Of a stretch of 38,907 bases of DNA, positions 7,194 through 16,518 are shown piece by piece. The notes under the pieces are model-generated. The model made no database searches, was not told the DNA's origin, and saw only the letters and a list, made by a program, of their open reading frames with translations. This stretch comes from a virus. The position numbers were made by a program, and so were the translations under genes. Numbering within the stretch: the stretch's first letter is position 1; each line of letters begins with the position of its first letter. The DNA is taken from IMG/VR virus record IMGVR_UViG_3300042465_004706, positions 1 to 38,907 of that record. The stretch is one strand, 5' to 3'.

Positions 7194-7775
7194 TTAAGTA
7201 TTTAGGAATGATGCTGTTCTGCCGTTGAACCGGAGGTGGGTACTCACACCACAAGGTCCGTTGCGCTGGAAAGGTATAGACACTTTCCGATTCTCTTCGC
7301 CATCTATTTCGATGGCCATGATACAGGTGGCGTCCTGCTGGATGGCGCGGCTCTCACGAGCCTTGCCCTGCTCGTTAAGCTGGGTGATGCCGATCACTAG
7401 GCAGCCCAGTTCTAGGCCTAACAGGCGCAGCGAGCGGGACACTTCTGCCACCTCTCGCTCACGGGTGGCATCCTTGCCTAACTCACACCGCACTAGCTGT
7501 ATGTAATCCACAAACAACACACGCAGACCCATGGTCGTCTTGCTCATGGCCCGTGCCACAGAGCAGATGCTACCGATGTCGTACAGGTCGTCCCGGATGA
7601 TCAGGTCGCTCTTGTGCAACACGTTGAGCGCCTTCTGCATCCCGGTCAGTTCACCCTCAGTCTTGACACCTTCAGCCAAGGACCGGAGTGACACGTTGCC
7701 AATCCGTGCCACTAACCGGTCAATGATCTGGCTGGCCGGCATCTCAAGGGAGACAATCAAAACGCCTGTCTTCAT
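7194..7775 (-). CDS. dnaB: Replicative DnaB-type helicase, C-terminal half
   Basis: A 193-aa protein that starts exactly where the N-terminal half (10976-11638) stops in the DnaB fold. It carries the VLIVSLEM strand with the catalytic Glu11, Walker B VLFVDYIQL (residues 86-94), the TQLNEQ sensor region (131-136) and the arginine loop QRNGPCG (170-176). It lacks a Walker A. It has its own ATG overlapping the previous stop (ATGA) and an AGAGG Shine-Dalgarno site eight bases upstream, so it is translated as a separate protein. It should pair with the N-half to rebuild one RecA domain. Both the family and the split are clear in the sequence. Confidence 0.88.
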   Translation of the reverse strand: MKTGVLIVSLEMPASQIIDRLVARIGNVSLRSLAEGVKTEGELTGMQKALNVLHKSDLIIRDDLYDIGSICSVARAMSKTTMGLRVLFVDYIQLVRCELGKDATREREVAEVSRSLRLLGLELGCLVIGITQLNEQGKARESRAIQQDATCIMAIEIDGEENRKVSIPFQRNGPCGVSTHLRFNGRTASFLNT

Positions 7776-8032
7776 TTCTTGAACCTCTTTCCGTTGTCCT
7801 TGCGCAGTTCCTTACTGTTGTGGCTCTTATGGTCATTGTACTTCGTCACCAAGAAGTCCACGAAGACTTCCTCTGTGCTGAAGTGCATGGGTTGGGTCGC
7901 CAAGTGATCTATGAGATCCTGGCAGTTTTCCTTGCTGCCGATTAGCAGGACTTCCTGCACGATCTTTGGCCTGGGCAGGTGCTCGTAGCCTTCGTTAGTG
8001 ATGCTGCGCCGCAGTGCAACGTACTCTCTCAT
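7772..8032 (-). CDS. Small hypothetical protein between the helicase halves
   Basis: An 86-aa protein beginning MREYVALRRSITNEGYEHL, with a central LLIGSKENCQDLIDHLATQ segment (about residues 29-47) and a Lys-rich end. No family is recognised. Both ends overlap neighbours by four bases. It directly precedes, and is coupled to, the C-terminal helicase half. Confidence 0.55.
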   Translation of the reverse strand: MREYVALRRSITNEGYEHLPRPKIVQEVLLIGSKENCQDLIDHLATQPMHFSTEEVFVDFLVTKYNDHKSHNSKELRKDNGKRFKK

Positions 8033-8223
8033 TTGCTGCGCAGGTAATTCTTTGCGTTGTCTACGGCATCACAGATCCTGCTGCTGCGAATAGAGCGCAG
8101 GTCATCAAACAAAAGCTCTGAGCCCTCTATGAGTTGCCAGACCAGCCACTCAAGTTCCCTGACTCGTTTCTCAGCAGCTTCTGCTCTCCGATACTCTTTT
8201 GCGTAATCTACATCTGTAGCCAT
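8029..8223 (-). CDS. Small coiled-coil protein
   Basis: A 64-aa protein that is mostly one coiled coil (YAKEYRRAEAAEKRVRELEW) plus a short C-terminal helix. The start overlaps the previous stop (TAATG). It is one of a run of four very small coupled genes at 8029-8832. Function unknown. Confidence 0.5.
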   Translation of the reverse strand: MATDVDYAKEYRRAEAAEKRVRELEWLVWQLIEGSELLFDDLRSIRSSRICDAVDNAKNYLRSK

Positions 8224-8441
8224 TATCCCAGTGCCTCCCGTGCAATTTTTTCCATGCGATCAATTTGGCCCATCACAGTTTGGCTCATTAAAAGGCAGCA
8301 CTGTCCTTCATCTGTGATTCGTTCCAGCGCAAACTGAAGCATCTCAATACGCTTTTCTGCGTCTTTAAGATCCTGCCTTAGCGCAATGATAATCGACTCA
8401 GCCAAGTCAGGGTCACGCCGGTATTTCTCTTTCCAAGTCAT
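8223..8441 (-). CDS. Small coiled-coil protein, tandem paralogue A
   Basis: A 72-aa helical protein. Its segment RIEMLQFALERI and its end KIAREALG resemble those of the next gene upstream (KLEYALERI, AIAREALE). The two look like a diverged tandem duplication. ATGA overlaps the neighbour. No function is known. Confidence 0.5.
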   Translation of the reverse strand: MTWKEKYRRDPDLAESIIIALRQDLKDAEKRIEMLQFALERITDEGQCCLLMSQTVMGQIDRMEKIAREALG

Positions 8442-8632
8442 TCTAGTGCCTCCCGTGCTATTGCCCGCACCGCGTCCATGCGGTCAGGCAGGGTGATGAC
8501 GAAGTCGCAGTCGCGGATGCGTTCAAGTGCGTATTCGAGTTTCTCAATCCAATCCGCTGCATCTAACATCAAGCAGTCCTCATCAGATACGCCCATTTTG
8601 GCTGTGTCTCTCAGTTGTTGCACTAAGCTCAT
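8438..8632 (-). CDS. Small coiled-coil protein, tandem paralogue B
   Basis: A 64-aa protein. DAADWIEKLEYALERIRDCD (residues about 24-43) and RMDAVRAIAREALE (51-64) align with the gene at 8223-8441. Its start overlaps the previous stop. It is probably a tandem duplicate whose role is unknown. Confidence 0.5.
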   Translation of the reverse strand: MSLVQQLRDTAKMGVSDEDCLMLDAADWIEKLEYALERIRDCDFVITLPDRMDAVRAIAREALE

Positions 8633-8832
8633 TCGGTCATCTCCTTGTCGATGTCAGCCAGGTAAAACGTCTTACCGTTAACTGTTATGCGCGTTTCAAG
8701 CGGCCACACTGCTCCTGCTATTCCTAGCCCATTGCCTCCGCATGCAGAGGCTCCACCAGACCCACCAGAGGAAGTGCATTGAACTGCCGAGGATTTCTCG
8801 GTAGTTGCCGCGTTAATTTGTTCGTCAGTCAT
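8629..8832 (-). CDS. Small Gly/Ser-rich hypothetical protein
   Basis: A 67-aa protein starting at the ATG at 8832, two bases before the stop of the exonuclease gene is reached. It has a Gly/Ser-rich stretch (SSGGSGGASACGGNGLG, about residues 21-37) and a beta-like end (RITVNGKTFYLADIDKEM). No family is recognised. Confidence 0.5.
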   Translation of the reverse strand: MTDEQINAATTEKSSAVQCTSSGGSGGASACGGNGLGIAGAVWPLETRITVNGKTFYLADIDKEMTE

Positions 8833-8833
8833 A

Positions 8834-9601
8834 TTATTCAAACCTCGGAAGGATCAACTTAAACTCAGGCAACCCCGGCCACTCTTGGCCCTGCTCGCAC
8901 CGCTTAAAGTGCGCCAACTCCTCCTCGATGCGGGCGTTGGCGTTGTCTAGCACGCCGCTAGAGGGCCGCATGAACTGAGCCAAATGTGGTGCTTCCGTAT
9001 CGACAACGAGGAACCAAAAGCCTGGCACCTCGCTCAAGCCAGCAGCCTGCTGGAAGCCGTACTGATACCAAGCGGCCTGCACATCGTACCTGAAGCGGTT
9101 GAAGCTGCTGTCAAAGTTGCGGATGTCGTTCGTGGTCTTGAGATCGACCAAGCACGTCTCCCCATTGATAGTGGCGATCATGTCCGGCCGGCCCTTGCAC
9201 TTGATACCGTCACGCTCCCAGAAGATGCTAGCCTCAATGTTATCATCCTCCCAAGCACAGTGCTCCATGAGCGGAGCGCAGGAATTTAAACAGCCGTTGA
9301 TCATGGCCGCTTCATCACGGGTTACGATCACCCTGCCGATGTTGTTCTCACAGAATAGTTGCCACTCCTCCTTGCCGGCTTTTGTGCGCTTGTCCACATC
9401 TGGACCCACTGCGTAGTCCACGCGGCCTTCGAGCACTAGCGAGTGGATGAGCGTGCCCATCTCCATTGAGCGGGATGGCTTCCATTCCTGCTTCTTGCGG
9501 TGCTGGTAGTAGCTGGGCGCAACCGCGAAGTTGTCCAACTCGTGCTTGCTGAGCCCGGCCATCTGGCGGTACTCGGTCATGGGTATGTTCCTGTGTATCA
9601 T
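8834..9601 (-). CDS. RecE-like PD-(D/E)XK exonuclease
   Basis: A 255-aa protein of the RecE/lambda-exonuclease type. The N-terminal SKHELDNFAVAPSYYQHRKK is followed by GTLIHSLVLEG (His53). The catalytic core is GRPDMI (Asp140), LVDLKTT (Asp153, Lys155) and the QAAWYQYGF motif (175-183). Such 5'-3' exonucleases resect double-stranded DNA for single-strand annealing. No Red-beta/RecT annealase is visible, so the OB-fold protein at 13285-13962 or the host may supply that step. The ATG at 9601 follows CAACTAACATT, without a Shine-Dalgarno site. Confidence 0.85.
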   Translation of the reverse strand: MIHRNIPMTEYRQMAGLSKHELDNFAVAPSYYQHRKKQEWKPSRSMEMGTLIHSLVLEGRVDYAVGPDVDKRTKAGKEEWQLFCENNIGRVIVTRDEAAMINGCLNSCAPLMEHCAWEDDNIEASIFWERDGIKCKGRPDMIATINGETCLVDLKTTNDIRNFDSSFNRFRYDVQAAWYQYGFQQAAGLSEVPGFWFLVVDTEAPHLAQFMRPSSGVLDNANARIEEELAHFKRCEQGQEWPGLPEFKLILPRFE

Positions 9602-9619
9602 AATGTTAGTTGTTTAGTG

Positions 9620-9982
9620 TTAAGCCCAGACTTCCCAGTCGTTAGCGAGGATGTCTGCTAAAAGCAGATGCAAGATAGCTCCATGGCAATCTTTCAATGT
9701 CAGTTTAGTATTTCTCCAGTCAGCCCTGCAAATAAACGCAGCCCCAGTATTATTCAATTGCTTAAATGCCGTTTGGATATTCAGGTTACCATATTGAAGC
9801 TCTGGCTCATGGGGTACGCCTTCCCATTCGCGATCAATGAGGCAGCCAAAGTCCATGCCCCTAAGTTCAGTCACGGTCTTTAAGTGGTTCATGTTCCCTT
9901 TCCCACGGAACTTGTCTTTGATCCGCACCCTCCAGCCATCAGCCAACTTGTCCAGCAGTTCGTGTCTTGGTATGTCTATCAT
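9620..9982 (-). CDS. ADWRN-motif hypothetical protein, long paralogue
   Basis: A 120-aa protein overlapping the dNMP kinase stop by four bases. The first half contains basic and GMDFGCLIDREWEGV segments. The second half holds FICRADWRNTKLTLKDCHGA (about residues 83-102), shared with the gene at 4703-4942. Function unknown. Confidence 0.55.
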   Translation of the reverse strand: MIDIPRHELLDKLADGWRVRIKDKFRGKGNMNHLKTVTELRGMDFGCLIDREWEGVPHEPELQYGNLNIQTAFKQLNNTGAAFICRADWRNTKLTLKDCHGAILHLLLADILANDWEVWA

Positions 9983-10440
9983 TTTGTTAGTATTGCTTTG
10001 ATTTTGTTGTGTAGGTCTTCGATGGTGCCATCGTTGACTATCTCTATATCGGCAGGGATGTCGGCCTGCTTTAGCTCTGATTCGTGATTTCCTGAAATAA
10101 TTCCGGGCCGCACGATGCGGACGATGATGCCGCCAATGCTGCGCACATAGTCGGCCTCGTTCTGAAAGCGCACGTCTGTGAACACATGGTTGCCGAATCC
10201 CACGGTTTCCTCATGCACATAGTCCACCCAAATGGACTCCTTGTACGCCCTGCCGGCCATACCTAGGTTTTGCAGGAGCTTGCGCCCCCGTTCGTCCTTG
10301 AGTCCGTTCCAGCCAAAGTCGAAGGCGAGGTTTTTAACTTGGTCAGCAAACGCTACCCGCTGGAAGTATAACTTCTTTAGAGCGTCTGCCGCGGTGTCCT
10401 TGCCGCTGCCGGCTAGGCCGATGAGTCCGATGTGTTTCAT
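9979..10440 (-). CDS. Deoxynucleoside monophosphate kinase
   Basis: A 153-aa P-loop kinase. GLAGSGKDTAADAL (residues 8-21) is a textbook Walker A. It is followed by an RVAFADQVK segment (about 29-37), VFTDVRFQNEAD (about 98-109) and IVRIVRPG (about 117-124), as in T4 gene 1-like dNMP kinases. It supplies dNDPs for phage DNA synthesis. I take the ATG at 10440. A start at 10482 would add 14 residues encoded by the GTGTTCAATT repeats and would overlap the upstream gene. It sits inside the 3.2-kb block between the two helicase halves. Confidence 0.85.
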   Translation of the reverse strand: MKHIGLIGLAGSGKDTAADALKKLYFQRVAFADQVKNLAFDFGWNGLKDERGRKLLQNLGMAGRAYKESIWVDYVHEETVGFGNHVFTDVRFQNEADYVRSIGGIIVRIVRPGIISGNHESELKQADIPADIEIVNDGTIEDLHNKIKAILTK

Positions 10441-10441
10441 T

Positions 10442-10484
10442 GTGTTCAATTCGTGTTCAATTTGTGTTTTTATTGTGTTCAATT
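10442..10484. repeat. Three direct GTGTTCAATT repeats
   Basis: Copies lie at 10442-10451, 10453-10462 and 10475-10484, spaced 11 and 22 bases apart and so on one face of the helix. They cover the leader of the dNMP kinase gene and the end of the upstream gene. The same 10-mer appears at 179-188 and 38795-38804, in the leader of the pre-terminase gene. They may be protein-binding sites. Confidence 0.7.
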
Positions 10485-10681
10485 AGCCACTGCTCAAAGG
10501 CTTTCCAGACTTGCTTGTTGGGATTCTGGCAGCACCGCTCGCTTCCGTCTTTCTTGAGCCACAGCGGGCCAAGGTGCTTGTCGTAATCAAACCGCCAAAT
10601 CTTGCCGTTCACGATGACCTGTTGGTCGGCCAGGTCACAAACTGTGATGACAGTTGTGCTATCTAGCCAGATGTCTTTCAC
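10457..10681 (-). CDS. Conserved small phage protein
   Basis: A 74-aa protein starting with GTG at 10681, overlapping the previous stop as GTGA. It contains VNGKIWRFDYDKHLGPLWLK (about residues 24-43) and a CCQNPNKQVWKAFEQWL end (about 49-65). Short phage proteins with this pattern are, I believe, common, and I know no function. An upstream ATG would read back into the neighbouring gene. Confidence 0.6.
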   Translation of the reverse strand: MKDIWLDSTTVITVCDLADQQVIVNGKIWRFDYDKHLGPLWLKKDGSERCCQNPNKQVWKAFEQWLIEHNKNTN

Positions 10682-10989
10682 GGGTTCACCTCCAAGGCAC
10701 CACAGGCCACTACGGCACCGTGTTCGTTGCGGATCATCTTTGACGGTGAGCACAGGTCCTTCCGGTCTGGTAGCTGGATGCGCAGCAGGCCGGCAACGAT
10801 AAACATCGTGTCATCCAGTGGCTCCGGGACGTTCGAGAGGCCCAGCATTTTGCTGGTCATTAGCGGCACACCGTTGACGGTGCCCACCTGCTGGAGCTGT
10901 GTGTTGACTCGGGCAATGTAGCCGGACGGTTCCACGTCTGGATGCCCGCTGATTTTGATTGTATGAGGAGTAAGATTAACGAGTTTCAT
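10678..10989 (-). CDS. Conserved hypothetical protein (NLTPHTIKI type)
   Basis: A 103-aa protein beginning MKLVNLTPHTIKISGHPDVE, then PSGYIARVNTQLQQ. This start resembles a widespread small family in phages and bacteria that begins with 'NLTPH' and 'PSGxxARV' and has no assigned function. The ATG at 10989 lies within the last codons of the N-terminal helicase half (14-base overlap). It is therefore the first gene of the block that separates the two halves. Confidence 0.65.
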   Translation of the reverse strand: MKLVNLTPHTIKISGHPDVEPSGYIARVNTQLQQVGTVNGVPLMTSKMLGLSNVPEPLDDTMFIVAGLLRIQLPDRKDLCSPSKMIRNEHGAVVACGALEVNP

Positions 10990-11638
10990 TGAGTATGTTT
11001 GCGATGATGTTGATTGCCAGCATGGTTTTGCCGGACTTCTCGGGGCCGCCGATGACCAAGAAGTCACCGTAGCGGATGGGGGTTAGGTTATCGAGCTTGT
11101 CGTACCCGGTACGGATACGCTGAGTGTGGTCATCGCCTTCCTGGTAGCGAGTGATGGCGTCCATGATGAGCGCCTGGGTGTCCAGCCGAATGGGTGGCGT
11201 CATCTCACCGCGGATGCGCTCAATCCCGGTGGCCAGTCCGTTGACTAGCTCCGTGGTTGTGACATCAGCGGACTCAGCAAACTGCATGCCTTCGGAGAGC
11301 ACAGCCACTACGGCCCTCCGCTTGCTGGCATTCTTGACGATCTCCATGAGCCCTTTCAGGGCCCCGGCAATCGGCATGAGTGTGTACAACTCGGTCACCT
11401 CATGGAACTGCACACTGTCATTCCGTTCGCGCAGCTTTTCAAAGATGATTCTAACGTCACAAACTGCGCGGCGTGACACTTGATCTAACACCACTTCAAC
11501 TACATCACGGCTTAACGCATCATAAATGAATGCGGGATTAAAAGCAGCGTCACTTATTGAATTAAGAACAAGCTCGGGGTGGTTAAGTGTGATACTTGCA
11601 ATACCACGCTCCGCCTCCACGGGAGTTGGTATTTTCAT
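10976..11638 (-). CDS. dnaB: Replicative DnaB-type helicase, N-terminal half
   Basis: A 220-aa protein with a DnaB N-terminal helical domain (about residues 8-105, beginning AERGIASITLNHPELVL). It then has a linker and the start of the RecA-like domain (IRTGYDKLDNLTPIRYGDFL, about 174-193), and ends right after Walker A (GGPEKSGKT, 197-205) and its helix. Intact DnaB continues with the strand carrying the catalytic Glu. Here the stop comes first and that strand opens the gene at 7194-7775. The ATG at 11638 overlaps the helicase loader stop (TAATG) after AAAGG. It is neither an intein precursor nor a decayed end, since the fold boundary is precise. Confidence 0.88.
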   Translation of the reverse strand: MKIPTPVEAERGIASITLNHPELVLNSISDAAFNPAFIYDALSRDVVEVVLDQVSRRAVCDVRIIFEKLRERNDSVQFHEVTELYTLMPIAGALKGLMEIVKNASKRRAVVAVLSEGMQFAESADVTTTELVNGLATGIERIRGEMTPPIRLDTQALIMDAITRYQEGDDHTQRIRTGYDKLDNLTPIRYGDFLVIGGPEKSGKTMLAINIIANILNETR

Positions 11639-12285
11639 TACCAACCTTTCTGCGAAGTGTTGTTAGCTTCGAGCAGTGAACCTGACCGGCTTTTAAGCGA
11701 CTGCCGCTTCTCGCCCTGCGCCCTGCAAAGCCAAGCGTTGAGGTAGCGACTCATGCCCCGGCGGGTCTTGCGCTTGGTGGGGTTGCAGTCCATCCAGAGA
11801 CGAGCCTTCATCAGTTCAAGGTCCACCGTGGTCTGCCCAAAAGCTGAGCAGAAGTCTGAGTACAGATTTGGTGGCATGGAGTAGAGGCCGTCAGTGCACT
11901 TAAATTGCTCAAGGTTCTCCTCTCCCCCCTCACCTTCCCCACCCTCTTCCTTCCTTTCCCCCGTACCCCCTATCCTACCATCTCCCTCCCCATCCTCACC
12001 CACCCTCTTCTCTCCAGTGGTTTCACATGCGAGAGACTTGAGCCCAAGCTTCCGCAAAAACCTCTCGGCCTCAGCACCAGCAATGTAAGGCAAGTCTTCA
12101 AGCACCTCATCGCTTGACTTCGTTGATGGCGCGTCCGCAGCCGGAATGGCCGGTTCTGATGCCGCTTGTGGCTCGTCTGGTGTCACCGGAGCGGATGGCA
12201 TTGTGACAGCCGCAGAATCGAGCACAGGGATGTTGACCTCCATGACGGTGCCGGAAGGGTGAGTGATCTTGATGTTGATGTTCAT
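11638..12285 (-). CDS. Probable helicase loader / replisome organiser
   Basis: A 215-aa protein in three parts: a beta-rich start (residues 1-25), a Pro/Ala- and then Gly/Glu-rich linker (about 30-122, from a polypurine coding strand), and a C-terminal domain. The domain contains MKARLWMDCNPTKRKTRRGM (about 158-177), then SRYLNAWLCRAQ. Segments of this kind end phage replication proteins of the helicase-loader type. Direct coupling to the DnaB N-half supports the role. A perfect GAAGGAGGTG Shine-Dalgarno site precedes the ATG. Confidence 0.6.
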   Translation of the reverse strand: MNINIKITHPSGTVMEVNIPVLDSAAVTMPSAPVTPDEPQAASEPAIPAADAPSTKSSDEVLEDLPYIAGAEAERFLRKLGLKSLACETTGEKRVGEDGEGDGRIGGTGERKEEGGEGEGGEENLEQFKCTDGLYSMPPNLYSDFCSAFGQTTVDLELMKARLWMDCNPTKRKTRRGMSRYLNAWLCRAQGEKRQSLKSRSGSLLEANNTSQKGW

Positions 12286-14223: not shown

Positions 14224-16518
14224 TTATTTGCGTTTTCTGAATTCTTTTTCTGCGCGCTTACGGGCGTCTTCCTGAGAGCTAAAGATCCCAATTCGCTTGT
14301 TGTCAGGACCATATAGCCCAAACCTTTTGCCGTCTTTGCTAAACATGCGGTAGCCGGTAGTGGAATCTGTGGCTGACATGCCTTGACCAAGTTGCTCCTG
14401 TTGAGTCGTTGCTGGCAAGAAGGTCATCTGCTGGTTGCGCGTCTGGTCAGCAACCTGGTTGACATAGTCAGAATGCAGTGACTCTGTAATGCGCTTTGTC
14501 ATTGCCATTTGCTCAGGGCTGTTGACCTTTAGGCTAGGCAGCTTCATCAAGAGCTTGCGCGTGGTTGGAGACTCATACGCACGAGCAGCCAGCCCGATTC
14601 CGCCAAGCGCGCCAGCAGCATTTGCGACCCCGCCAACAGCACTGCTAATCATCTGCACGAACAACGGCATTGCCAACTTTGCGCCAGTTTGCGGATTGTC
14701 GTTAAACGAGCCAGATCGCTGCGTCAGCTTAAGGTAATTTATCTTGCCGTTAAGCACATCTAGTTCTGCTGGCTCAAATACAACGCCAATTGGCTTTGCG
14801 AGTTTCTGTACGTTATTCAGAAACTTTGGGATAGAAATGTCTCCGCTGCTAACCAAAGAATCCTTGGCGGCTTTAGATAAAATTGCGGACTTTGCGTTGT
14901 CGAGCCCAGCTTGATCCAAGTTGTTGATTAAAATCCTTACATCGCTTGGCTTTGAGGAAAACAGCAACTGACCCACCTGCTCAGGATTTGCAGTGCCCCG
15001 GCGCAGCACGGAACGAAGTGCAGTGGACTCCGTCTCTTTAATCATTCCATAAATCTCAGAGTTTGCCCTAGACCATTCAGATGCAACCCCTGGACCTTCT
15101 GCTGCTTCAATAAAGCCCCTTACATCATTGCGCAGTGATCTGTAAACCTTGCGGCTGACCTTCTCAAAGTCACTTTTAATGTGAGCAAGCGTTGGGTCTT
15201 TTGCCAACGAAGTGCCAATCACTTTCAAGTTAGGCTCAATTTGAGCCAAAGGCTTGCCAGTGTACCCAATAATGGCATTGGTTACTGGATCAATAATTTC
15301 GTCACCAAGCAGCGCAGATCTAAGCTCAGATAGCTTTGCGATTGCAGGAGCATAAAACCTCTGATTGATGCCAGCCATCCGCCTTGCTTCAGCGTCTATT
15401 GTGTTAAGGGTAGATTGTAGCTCAGTAGCCTGCATGGCAGGCATTCCAGAAGAAACGCGACCAACAATAGCATTTTTCTGTCCAGTCCAAGTGGCTAAGT
15501 TACTTGCCCTAGTGGTGCCAAGCGACCTCATCACGTCATTGATGACATCTGAGTCCGCAGATGCGCCAAATTGCGATAGCAATTCACTGACCGTGTTTAC
15601 GCGATCCTGCTGCTCTCTTGCTCTTTGTGGAGCAGTGCCAAGCAGCGTTCCTTCAGTAAATTCCTGTCTCAGTTTCTGCCACTTTGTTTCAGGCGGAAAC
15701 ACATCAGAAGTCATTACTGATTTGCCCTCTGCTTCCGCAGCGGCAACAGTTGCGGAGACTTCTGCTGAAGTCATGCCAGGCACCCTTGGCTGAGCAGGAG
15801 CAAGACTACGCGAAGCTCCTATCCTTGCGCCAGTCATTCCGCCTGCAAGTCCACCAATAAGCCCAGCTACCGTTTGCCCTGTTTCTCCAAGGCCGGCTGA
15901 TTCAGCGCCAGATCTTGCTAGCTCTCCGCCTGCTCCAGCACCCATGCCAGCTACCACTTGCTGCCCAGGCCCTGATGCTAAAGCCGCGCCAACACGCTGG
16001 GCCAAAGGAGACGATAAGCCTTGAAGCATCTTGCCTGCGCCAACTCCGCTAAGCGCGCTTATGCCACCAGCGGAAATTGCCTCAATGAGCCTCTGCCCTT
16101 CAGTGCTAGACACAGGAATCCCAAGCTGATCCATCAAGTGTGACCAAGCCTCTGTAGGAGTCGTAAGTCGAGTCCCAAACAGCTTATTGACTCCAGCAAT
16201 CACTGGATCAGCAAGCATTGCCCCAGTGGCTAAAGCTCCCGCACCAGCTAGTGCCGGCGCTCCAACTACTGTTGCCGCTGCTGCTCCAGCACCCATCATG
16301 GCAAGGGTAGGCAATACTCCACGAATCACAGGAGCAGCAGTTTGCAGTGCTTCTTCACCCATGCTTGGAGCAGCCTTTGTCGCCGGCTTCTCTGCTGCCT
16401 GCAATCGGTCTAACTCGCCAAGCAATGCCTGAACATCAGCCACCGCTTGCTGGTCGCCTGCTTGGGCGGCAGCGTCAGCACTCCTTAAGAGGTCGTAAAG
16501 TTCGTTGATGTCAGCCAT
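14224..16518 (-). CDS. Large internal-virion-like protein
   Basis: A 764-aa protein. It has an N-terminal helical part and long Gly/Ala-rich hydrophobic stretches (about residues 60-115 and 150-240, with glycine-zipper patterns such as MGAGAAAATVVGAPALAGAG) that could insert in membranes. A long helical body follows, then a basic end with RFGLYGPDNKRIGIFSSQED. Size, composition and position after other late genes match DNA-ejection or core proteins of podoviruses. I see no lytic transglycosylase motif. Function is inferred from position and composition. Confidence 0.6.
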   Translation of the reverse strand: MADINELYDLLRSADAAAQAGDQQAVADVQALLGELDRLQAAEKPATKAAPSMGEEALQTAAPVIRGVLPTLAMMGAGAAAATVVGAPALAGAGALATGAMLADPVIAGVNKLFGTRLTTPTEAWSHLMDQLGIPVSSTEGQRLIEAISAGGISALSGVGAGKMLQGLSSPLAQRVGAALASGPGQQVVAGMGAGAGGELARSGAESAGLGETGQTVAGLIGGLAGGMTGARIGASRSLAPAQPRVPGMTSAEVSATVAAAEAEGKSVMTSDVFPPETKWQKLRQEFTEGTLLGTAPQRAREQQDRVNTVSELLSQFGASADSDVINDVMRSLGTTRASNLATWTGQKNAIVGRVSSGMPAMQATELQSTLNTIDAEARRMAGINQRFYAPAIAKLSELRSALLGDEIIDPVTNAIIGYTGKPLAQIEPNLKVIGTSLAKDPTLAHIKSDFEKVSRKVYRSLRNDVRGFIEAAEGPGVASEWSRANSEIYGMIKETESTALRSVLRRGTANPEQVGQLLFSSKPSDVRILINNLDQAGLDNAKSAILSKAAKDSLVSSGDISIPKFLNNVQKLAKPIGVVFEPAELDVLNGKINYLKLTQRSGSFNDNPQTGAKLAMPLFVQMISSAVGGVANAAGALGGIGLAARAYESPTTRKLLMKLPSLKVNSPEQMAMTKRITESLHSDYVNQVADQTRNQQMTFLPATTQQEQLGQGMSATDSTTGYRMFSKDGKRFGLYGPDNKRIGIFSSQEDARKRAEKEFRKRK

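What the first reader, a model, noticed from the sequence alone, without database searches (positions are those of the whole stretch)
7194..11638. DnaB replicative helicase split into two distant genes with Walker A and Walker B in different proteins
The gene at 10976-11638 holds the DnaB N-domain and the RecA domain only up to Walker A (GGPEKSGKT). The gene at 7194-7775 resumes at the next strand (VLIVSLEM, catalytic Glu11) and holds Walker B and the arginine loop. Nothing conserved is lost and no intein residues are seen at either edge. Each piece has its own start, with an overlap to its neighbour and a fair Shine-Dalgarno site. Ten genes (including a dNMP kinase and a RecE-like exonuclease) lie between them. 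A non-covalently reassembled ATPase core would be unusual for a hexameric helicase and I know of no described example.
Basis: partly seen in the sequence, partly recalled or inferred. Interest (0 to 1): 0.92.

Follow-up and report, generated by a model that had tools for sequence, protein, structure and literature searches.

The report
Phage replicative helicase encoded in halves
A whole lineage of environmental phages makes its DNA-unwinding motor (a DnaB-type helicase) as two separate proteins from genes 1.3-3.8 kb apart, with the ATP-binding loop on one and the catalytic residues on the other, so the two presumably have to come together to form a working engine.

Summary
Window 10976-11638(-) encodes the DnaB N-domain, linker and RecA core up to the end of the Walker-A helix. 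Window 7194-7775(-) resumes before strand beta-2 and carries the catalytic Glu, Walker B and arginine finger. Profiles of the halves tile solved DnaB (2r6a residues 11-229 and 233-438). The break is not an accident of one contig: 68 distinct interval sequences (164 loci; IMG/VR plus one MAG) show the same order, strand and break point, 1.3-3.8 kb apart, never fused. 24 records of 37-44 kb hold these two pieces and no other DnaB_C match. Both halves are under strong purifying selection (median dN/dS 0.05 and 0.04) and their catalytic motifs are invariant. A single-ORF sister (432 aa) exists in other phages at the equivalent locus; the residue count across the break is unchanged. No intron, intein or homing endonuclease was found. 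Best explanation: the two polypeptides reassemble non-covalently into a DnaB ring. Other split phage replication enzymes are known, so this is a new variant of a known kind, but I found no described hexameric helicase with Walker A and B on different chains. Reassembly itself is inferred, not shown.

The parts
10976..11638 (-). N-half gene: DnaB N-domain, linker helix, beta-1, P-loop and its helix (220 aa)
11024..11047 (-). Walker A GPEKSGKT (N-half residues 198-205), with the family-specific P-loop Lys201
   Evidence: sequence; 74 of 74 distinct N-halves have G..KSGKT
7194..7775 (-). C-half gene: rest of the RecA ATPase core (193 aa)
7740..7751 (-). SLEM with the catalytic Glu11 of the C-half
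   Evidence: invariant in 54 of 54
7503..7520 (-). Walker B VLFVDY (C-half residues 86-91, Asp90)
   Evidence: motif present in 54 of 54
7254..7268 (-). QRNGP hairpin with the arginine finger (Arg171); the preceding Lys of canonical DnaB is Phe169 here
   Evidence: 54 of 54 keep QRNGP, 0 of 54 keep the Lys
10678..10989 (-). MKLVNLTPHT protein; starts inside the end of the N-half gene
   Evidence: present in 68 of 68 intervals; overlap
8834..9601 (-). DUF3799 / exonuclease VIII-like (RecE-like) nuclease
   Evidence: PF12684 E=4.7e-22, phrog_412 E=1.4e-50; in 68 of 68 intervals
9979..10440 (-). dNMP kinase-like gene
   Evidence: PF21448 E=3e-12, phrog_139 E=4.8e-40; in 27 of 68 intervals
7772..8032 (-). 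small ORF whose stop overlaps the C-half start (ATGA)
   Evidence: related ORF in 54 of 68 intervals
11638..12285 (-). gene immediately upstream of the N-half; its C-terminal part resembles the gene upstream of the intact sister dnaB

Best explanation
The phage's DnaB-family replicative helicase is made as two independently translated polypeptides. The N-half supplies the N-terminal collar domain, the linker helix, strand beta-1 and the P-loop with its helix. The C-half supplies the rest of the RecA ATPase core: catalytic Glu, Walker B, DNA-binding loops and arginine finger. The two associate non-covalently to rebuild one RecA fold per protomer, and six such pairs form the ring. Each ATP site would then be built from three chains: the P-loop of an N-half, the Glu and Walker B of its own C-half, and the Arg finger of the neighbouring C-half. 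The split probably arose once, in the loop between the P-loop helix and beta-2 of an ancestral single-gene helicase. Shown here: the split, its conservation, selection on both halves, absence of another DnaB_C match in near-complete genomes, and an intact sister. Inferred: physical association, ring formation and helicase activity.
For: Same break in 68 distinct intervals, never fused. Only these two DnaB_C pieces in 24 of 24 records of 37-44 kb. Median dN/dS 0.053 and 0.039. Catalytic motifs of both halves invariant: 74 of 74 and 54 of 54; a P-loop without Glu/Walker B, and the reverse, would not both be kept unless they form one site. Halves tile PDB 2r6a residues 11-229 and 233-438, and both models match DnaB folds. 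Intact sister with the same residue count across the break, in the same place relative to the upstream gene. In single-chain models confidence falls in the N-half RecA fragment and in the C-half after beta-4, where the missing beta-1 would pair. Gene pair distances for N and C are highly correlated, r=0.976, though other genes of the interval are close (0.956-0.961).
Against: No direct evidence of association, ring formation or activity; no two-chain model. All but one record are metagenome-derived virus contigs and the host is unknown. One hairpin lysine of canonical DnaB is lost. Low model confidence could partly reflect shallow alignments.
Confidence: 0.85

Rival explanations
1. The halves act separately: for example the N-half enters or blocks the host DnaB ring and the C-half has an unrelated role.
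For: The host presumably has its own DnaB (the MAG that carries one copy does), and the N-half contains the collar and linker regions that contact neighbouring subunits in DnaB (established knowledge).
Against: P-loop residues in one and Glu, Walker B and arginine finger in the other are invariant, which separate roles would not require; the two always occur together, with no other DnaB_C piece.
Confidence: 0.08
2. The halves are joined covalently, by split inteins (as in fractured gp41 helicase genes) or by trans-spliced introns.
For: Fractured phage genes with split inteins are known, including gp41 helicase (Dassa 2009, cited in PMC10343443; paper itself not held).
Against: N-half ends 11-16 residues after GKT in 69 of 74, C-half starts at a Met 8-9 residues before SLEM in 54 of 54, leaving no room for intein pieces. 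No intron family in Rfam. C-half start overlaps the preceding ORF by 4 nt in 36 of 68.
Confidence: 0.03
3. The DNA between the halves is excised during infection, restoring one gene (as in nifD or sigK elements).
For: Both halves lie on one strand in the right order.
Against: No shared border repeat beyond chance-like length (mean 6.4, max 9 nt; random mean 5.6, 95% 8); no recombinase family among the recurrent interval genes; the interval holds conserved phage genes; the N-half has its own stop and the C-half its own start.
Confidence: 0.01
4. Assembly error or a decaying pseudogene.
For: Metagenome contigs.
Against: Same break in many independent assemblies with different interval lengths; dN/dS about 0.05; no stops inside the halves as annotated here.
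Confidence: 0.01

Closest known systems
DnaB / phage DnaB-like replicative helicase (SF4; PF00772 + PF03796; phrog_19), e.g. P1 Ban
   Same: Same domains in the same order across the two chains; Walker A, catalytic Glu, Walker B and arginine finger conserved; both models match DnaB folds
   Different: Two separate chains; hairpin lysine lost and P-loop lysine gained; C-half only about 34% identical to P1 Ban
Intact sister helicase, IMGVR_UViG_3300034012_001325 (432 aa) and four relatives
   Same: Closest relative found (C-part 42-44%, N-part about 31% identical); same upstream gene
   Different: One ORF; GTTGSGKT and GKQRDG retained; different downstream genes
Split NrdA of phage Aeh1 and split gp43 polymerase of phage 25 (PMC2988022)
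   Same: Phage replication-related enzymes in two polypeptides that form an active enzyme without splicing
   Different: Different enzymes; the NrdA split is tied to a homing endonuclease, none found here; not a hexameric ATPase
Split PolIII alpha of group 2.2 jumbo phages (PMC7824862)
   Same: A catalytic replication enzyme divided between distantly located genes, conserved in a lineage
   Different: A polymerase; function also inferred only
Fractured gp41 helicase genes with split inteins (Dassa 2009)
   Same: A DnaB-family phage helicase encoded in two places
   Different: Those are rejoined by protein trans-splicing; no intein sequence here. From memory, that break is also at another site, near motif H3

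Membership tests
DnaB-type (SF4) replicative helicase | DnaB N-domain plus RecA-type C-domain | tested here: met
   Pfam/PHROG, PDB profiles (49, 50), Foldseek (52, 53); spread over two chains; Pfam N-domain score is just under its cut-off
DnaB-type (SF4) replicative helicase | Walker A, catalytic Glu, Walker B, H3 and arginine finger | tested here: met
   Invariant in 74 N-halves and 54 C-halves
DnaB-type (SF4) replicative helicase | Lysine of the KxR hairpin (lysine finger) | tested here: not met
   0 of 54 C-halves; sister has it. I treat this as a common, not a defining, feature
DnaB-type (SF4) replicative helicase | Hexamer formation, ATPase and 5'-3' unwinding | not testable with these tools
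   Needs biochemistry
Fractured gene with split intein | Intein fragments at both edges of the break | tested here: not met
   No room for them
Fractured gene with split intein | Homing endonuclease at the break | tested here: not met
   No such family among recurrent interval ORFs; judged from recurrent clusters and Pfam/PHROG hits of window genes, not a full scan of every interval
Genes-in-pieces enzyme reassembled without splicing | Conserved separate ORFs each with own start and stop, no intact copy | tested here: met
Genes-in-pieces enzyme reassembled without splicing | Chains associate and are active together | not testable with these tools
   Indirect support only

The most novel reading that the evidence does not exclude
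An obligate two-chain replicative helicase (six N-halves plus six C-halves) in which each ATP site is built from three polypeptides, and in which the trans-acting lysine of the C-terminal hairpin has been replaced by a new lysine in the P-loop of the other chain: a rewiring of the ATPase that accompanied the gene split.
Probability: 0.35. Interest if true: 0.88.

Novelty: new variant of a known kind. Interest (0 to 1): 0.78.

Why it matters
Hexameric helicases couple ATP sites around a ring, and DnaB is normally a single chain. A natural, lineage-wide version cut through the middle of the RecA sheet, between Walker A and the catalytic Glu, would show that a core replication motor tolerates assembly from two chains. 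It would offer a ready-made two-component helicase whose assembly can be controlled, and a way to ask whether phages gain something (timing, escape from helicase-targeting inhibitors or defences) from splitting it. The intact sister is a direct control.

Tried and rejected
Annotated phage collection: the C-half's best hits are P1/P7 Ban-type DnaB at about 34% identity, and the N-half has no match at E<=1e-5; no nucleotide relative. Weak N-half hits in a faecal phage and Helicobacter prophages proved to be ordinary contiguous or frameshifted dnaB genes. phrog_23150 (217 aa) matches the N-half almost to its end and could be another N-half family; I could not reach its members. Rfam found no introns; border repeats gave no clear excision signal. 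Host: the only genome hit is a contig binned in a Pedosphaera sp. MAG; a search of 388 genomes of its phylum found no other copy, so the host stays unknown. Promoter/terminator scan found none on the coding strand between the halves, consistent with one transcript but not proof. Papers: no report of a split DnaB, or of Walker A and B on separate chains of a helicase; the library lacks most subscription journals and the Dassa 2009 paper. A Pfam call failed through a wrong reference and was repeated.

Full report
OBSERVATION. The gene at 10976-11638(-) encodes 220 aa with a DnaB N-domain, linker and the start of the RecA domain, through GGPEKSGKTMLAINIIANILNETR-stop. The gene at 7194-7775(-) encodes 193 aa beginning MKTGVLIVSLEMP and covers the rest of the DnaB C-terminal domain. 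They are the only DnaB_C matches in the 38.9-kb virus record.

THE BREAK IS CONSERVED. Searches of IMG/VR with each half, then with alignments of each half, returned many relatives (lists capped at 80 loci) and one MAG contig. In all 173 sequences with matches to both halves (the window included; many are overlapping fetches of the same contigs), the N-half precedes the C-half on the same strand with a gap of 1.3-3.8 kb; none is fused. In 164 loci both halves are complete, with 68 distinct interval sequences. N-halves fall to 42% identity with the window's and C-halves to about 67%, yet the end of the N-half (11-16 residues after GKT in 69 of 74 distinct sequences) and the start of the C-half (Met 8-9 residues before SLEM in 54 of 54) stay fixed.

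NO INTACT COPY IN THE SAME GENOMES. All 24 records of 37-44 kb that I tested contain exactly two DnaB_C matches: model positions 2 to about 45-60, and about 38-49 to 255. Completeness was not given for them, so a further copy outside the assembled part cannot be fully excluded.

SELECTION. Median dN/dS is 0.053 for the N-half (471 pairs) and 0.039 for the C-half (716 pairs), with maxima 0.12 and 0.09. Walker A (74 of 74) and SLEM, Walker B, ITQLN and QRNGP (54 of 54 each) are present in every distinct sequence. A protein carrying only a P-loop and another carrying only Glu, Walker B and the arginine finger would not both be kept perfect unless they form one active site (inference).

INTACT SISTER AND ORIGIN. 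A pattern search for contiguous SGKTM...SLEMP found a single-ORF relative in four contigs (a fifth contig). The best is 432 aa in IMGVR_UViG_3300034012_001325 at 14842-16140(-). Its upstream neighbour overlaps its start by 4 nt and resembles the gene just upstream of the N-half in the split phages, so the intact gene occupies the N-half's position. Its downstream genes differ: terminase- and portal-like by inspection. In the sister 22 residues lie between GKT and SLEM; the split members usually have 13-15 plus 8, so nothing was lost or added. Against solved DnaB 2r6a the N-profile ends at residue 229 and the C-profile starts at 233. A tree of the C-part puts split and sister sequences together (95/92), with the split label needing one change (support 72/78): one origin is likely but not firmly resolved.

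STRUCTURE. AlphaFold2 models of the lone chains match DnaB in Foldseek. Confidence is high for the N-domain (residues 1 to about 140) and low for the RecA fragment of the N-half (150-220). In the C-half it is good to residue 132 and low after that. In this fold class beta-1 sits between beta-4 and beta-5 (established knowledge), so the C-half loses confidence where it should pair with the strand carried by the N-half. This fits chains that need each other, but shallow alignments could also contribute.

A SECOND CHANGE. All 74 distinct N-halves have a lysine inside the P-loop (G[EP][TE]KSGKT) that the sister (GTTGSGKT) lacks, and none of the 54 C-halves has the lysine of the KQRNGP-type hairpin, which the sister keeps (GKQRDG). 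Arginine and lysine fingers are recognised in SF4 helicases (PMC8421360). I suggest, as inference only, that the P-loop lysine on one chain compensates for the finger lost from the other.

THE INTERVAL AND EXPRESSION. Two gene families occur in all 68 intervals: a small MKLVNLTPHT protein, which starts inside the end of the N-half gene (4-14 nt overlap in 59 of 68), and a DUF3799/exonuclease-VIII-like nuclease. A dNMP kinase-like gene occurs in 27. The C-half start overlaps the preceding ORF by 4 nt in 36 of 68, so translation from its own start, possibly coupled, is likely. SD-like motifs before it are no commoner than background. No promoter or terminator pattern was found on the coding strand between the halves.

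ALTERNATIVES. There is no room for intein pieces, no intron match and no clear excision repeat. Assembly error or decay is excluded by recurrence and selection. Separate functions for the halves cannot be fully excluded.

COMPARISON. Functional reassembly of split phage enzymes is known: NrdA of Aeh1 and gp43 of phage 25 (PMC2988022). A PolIII alpha split between distant genes is proposed for jumbo phages (PMC7824862). gp41 helicase genes broken with split inteins are known (Dassa 2009, not held). I found no paper describing a DnaB-family helicase permanently divided between Walker A and Walker B. I therefore class it as a new variant of a known kind, with high interest. [quoted passage not shown] it might be a member of this family not recognised as such, which I could not check.

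Noticed in passing
N-half residue 201 and C-half residue 169 (window 11036-11038 and 7269-7271): A Lys gained in the P-loop and a Lys lost from the C-terminal hairpin, both fixed in the split family and opposite in the intact sister.
   Followed up: partly
window 10678-10989: MKLVNLTPHT protein of unknown function (phrog_21731/30542) is present in every interval and begins inside the N-half gene.
   Followed up: partly
window 11638-12285 and L217 16137-17039: The genes upstream of the split and of the intact helicase share a C-terminal stretch without a confident family match; possibly replication initiators or loaders.
   Followed up: partly
phrog_23150 (217 aa, unknown function): Matches the N-half up to just past Walker A and is about the same length; may be another N-half-only family.
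   Followed up: partly
L028, L030, L032, L112 N-half ends: A few N-halves carry variable tails of about 20-37 residues after the P-loop; function unknown.
   Followed up: no
L193 (Pedosphaera sp. MAG contig JAFMIZ010000069.1): The split helicase also occurs on a contig binned into a bacterial MAG that has its own single-ORF DnaB elsewhere; weak hint at the host.
   Followed up: partly
window 1-38907: No DNA polymerase or primase was noticed among the larger ORFs by inspection and partial family scans, suggesting reliance on the host replisome.
   Followed up: partly
L067 2703-2774: A tRNA gene in a related phage; the window has none.
   Followed up: no
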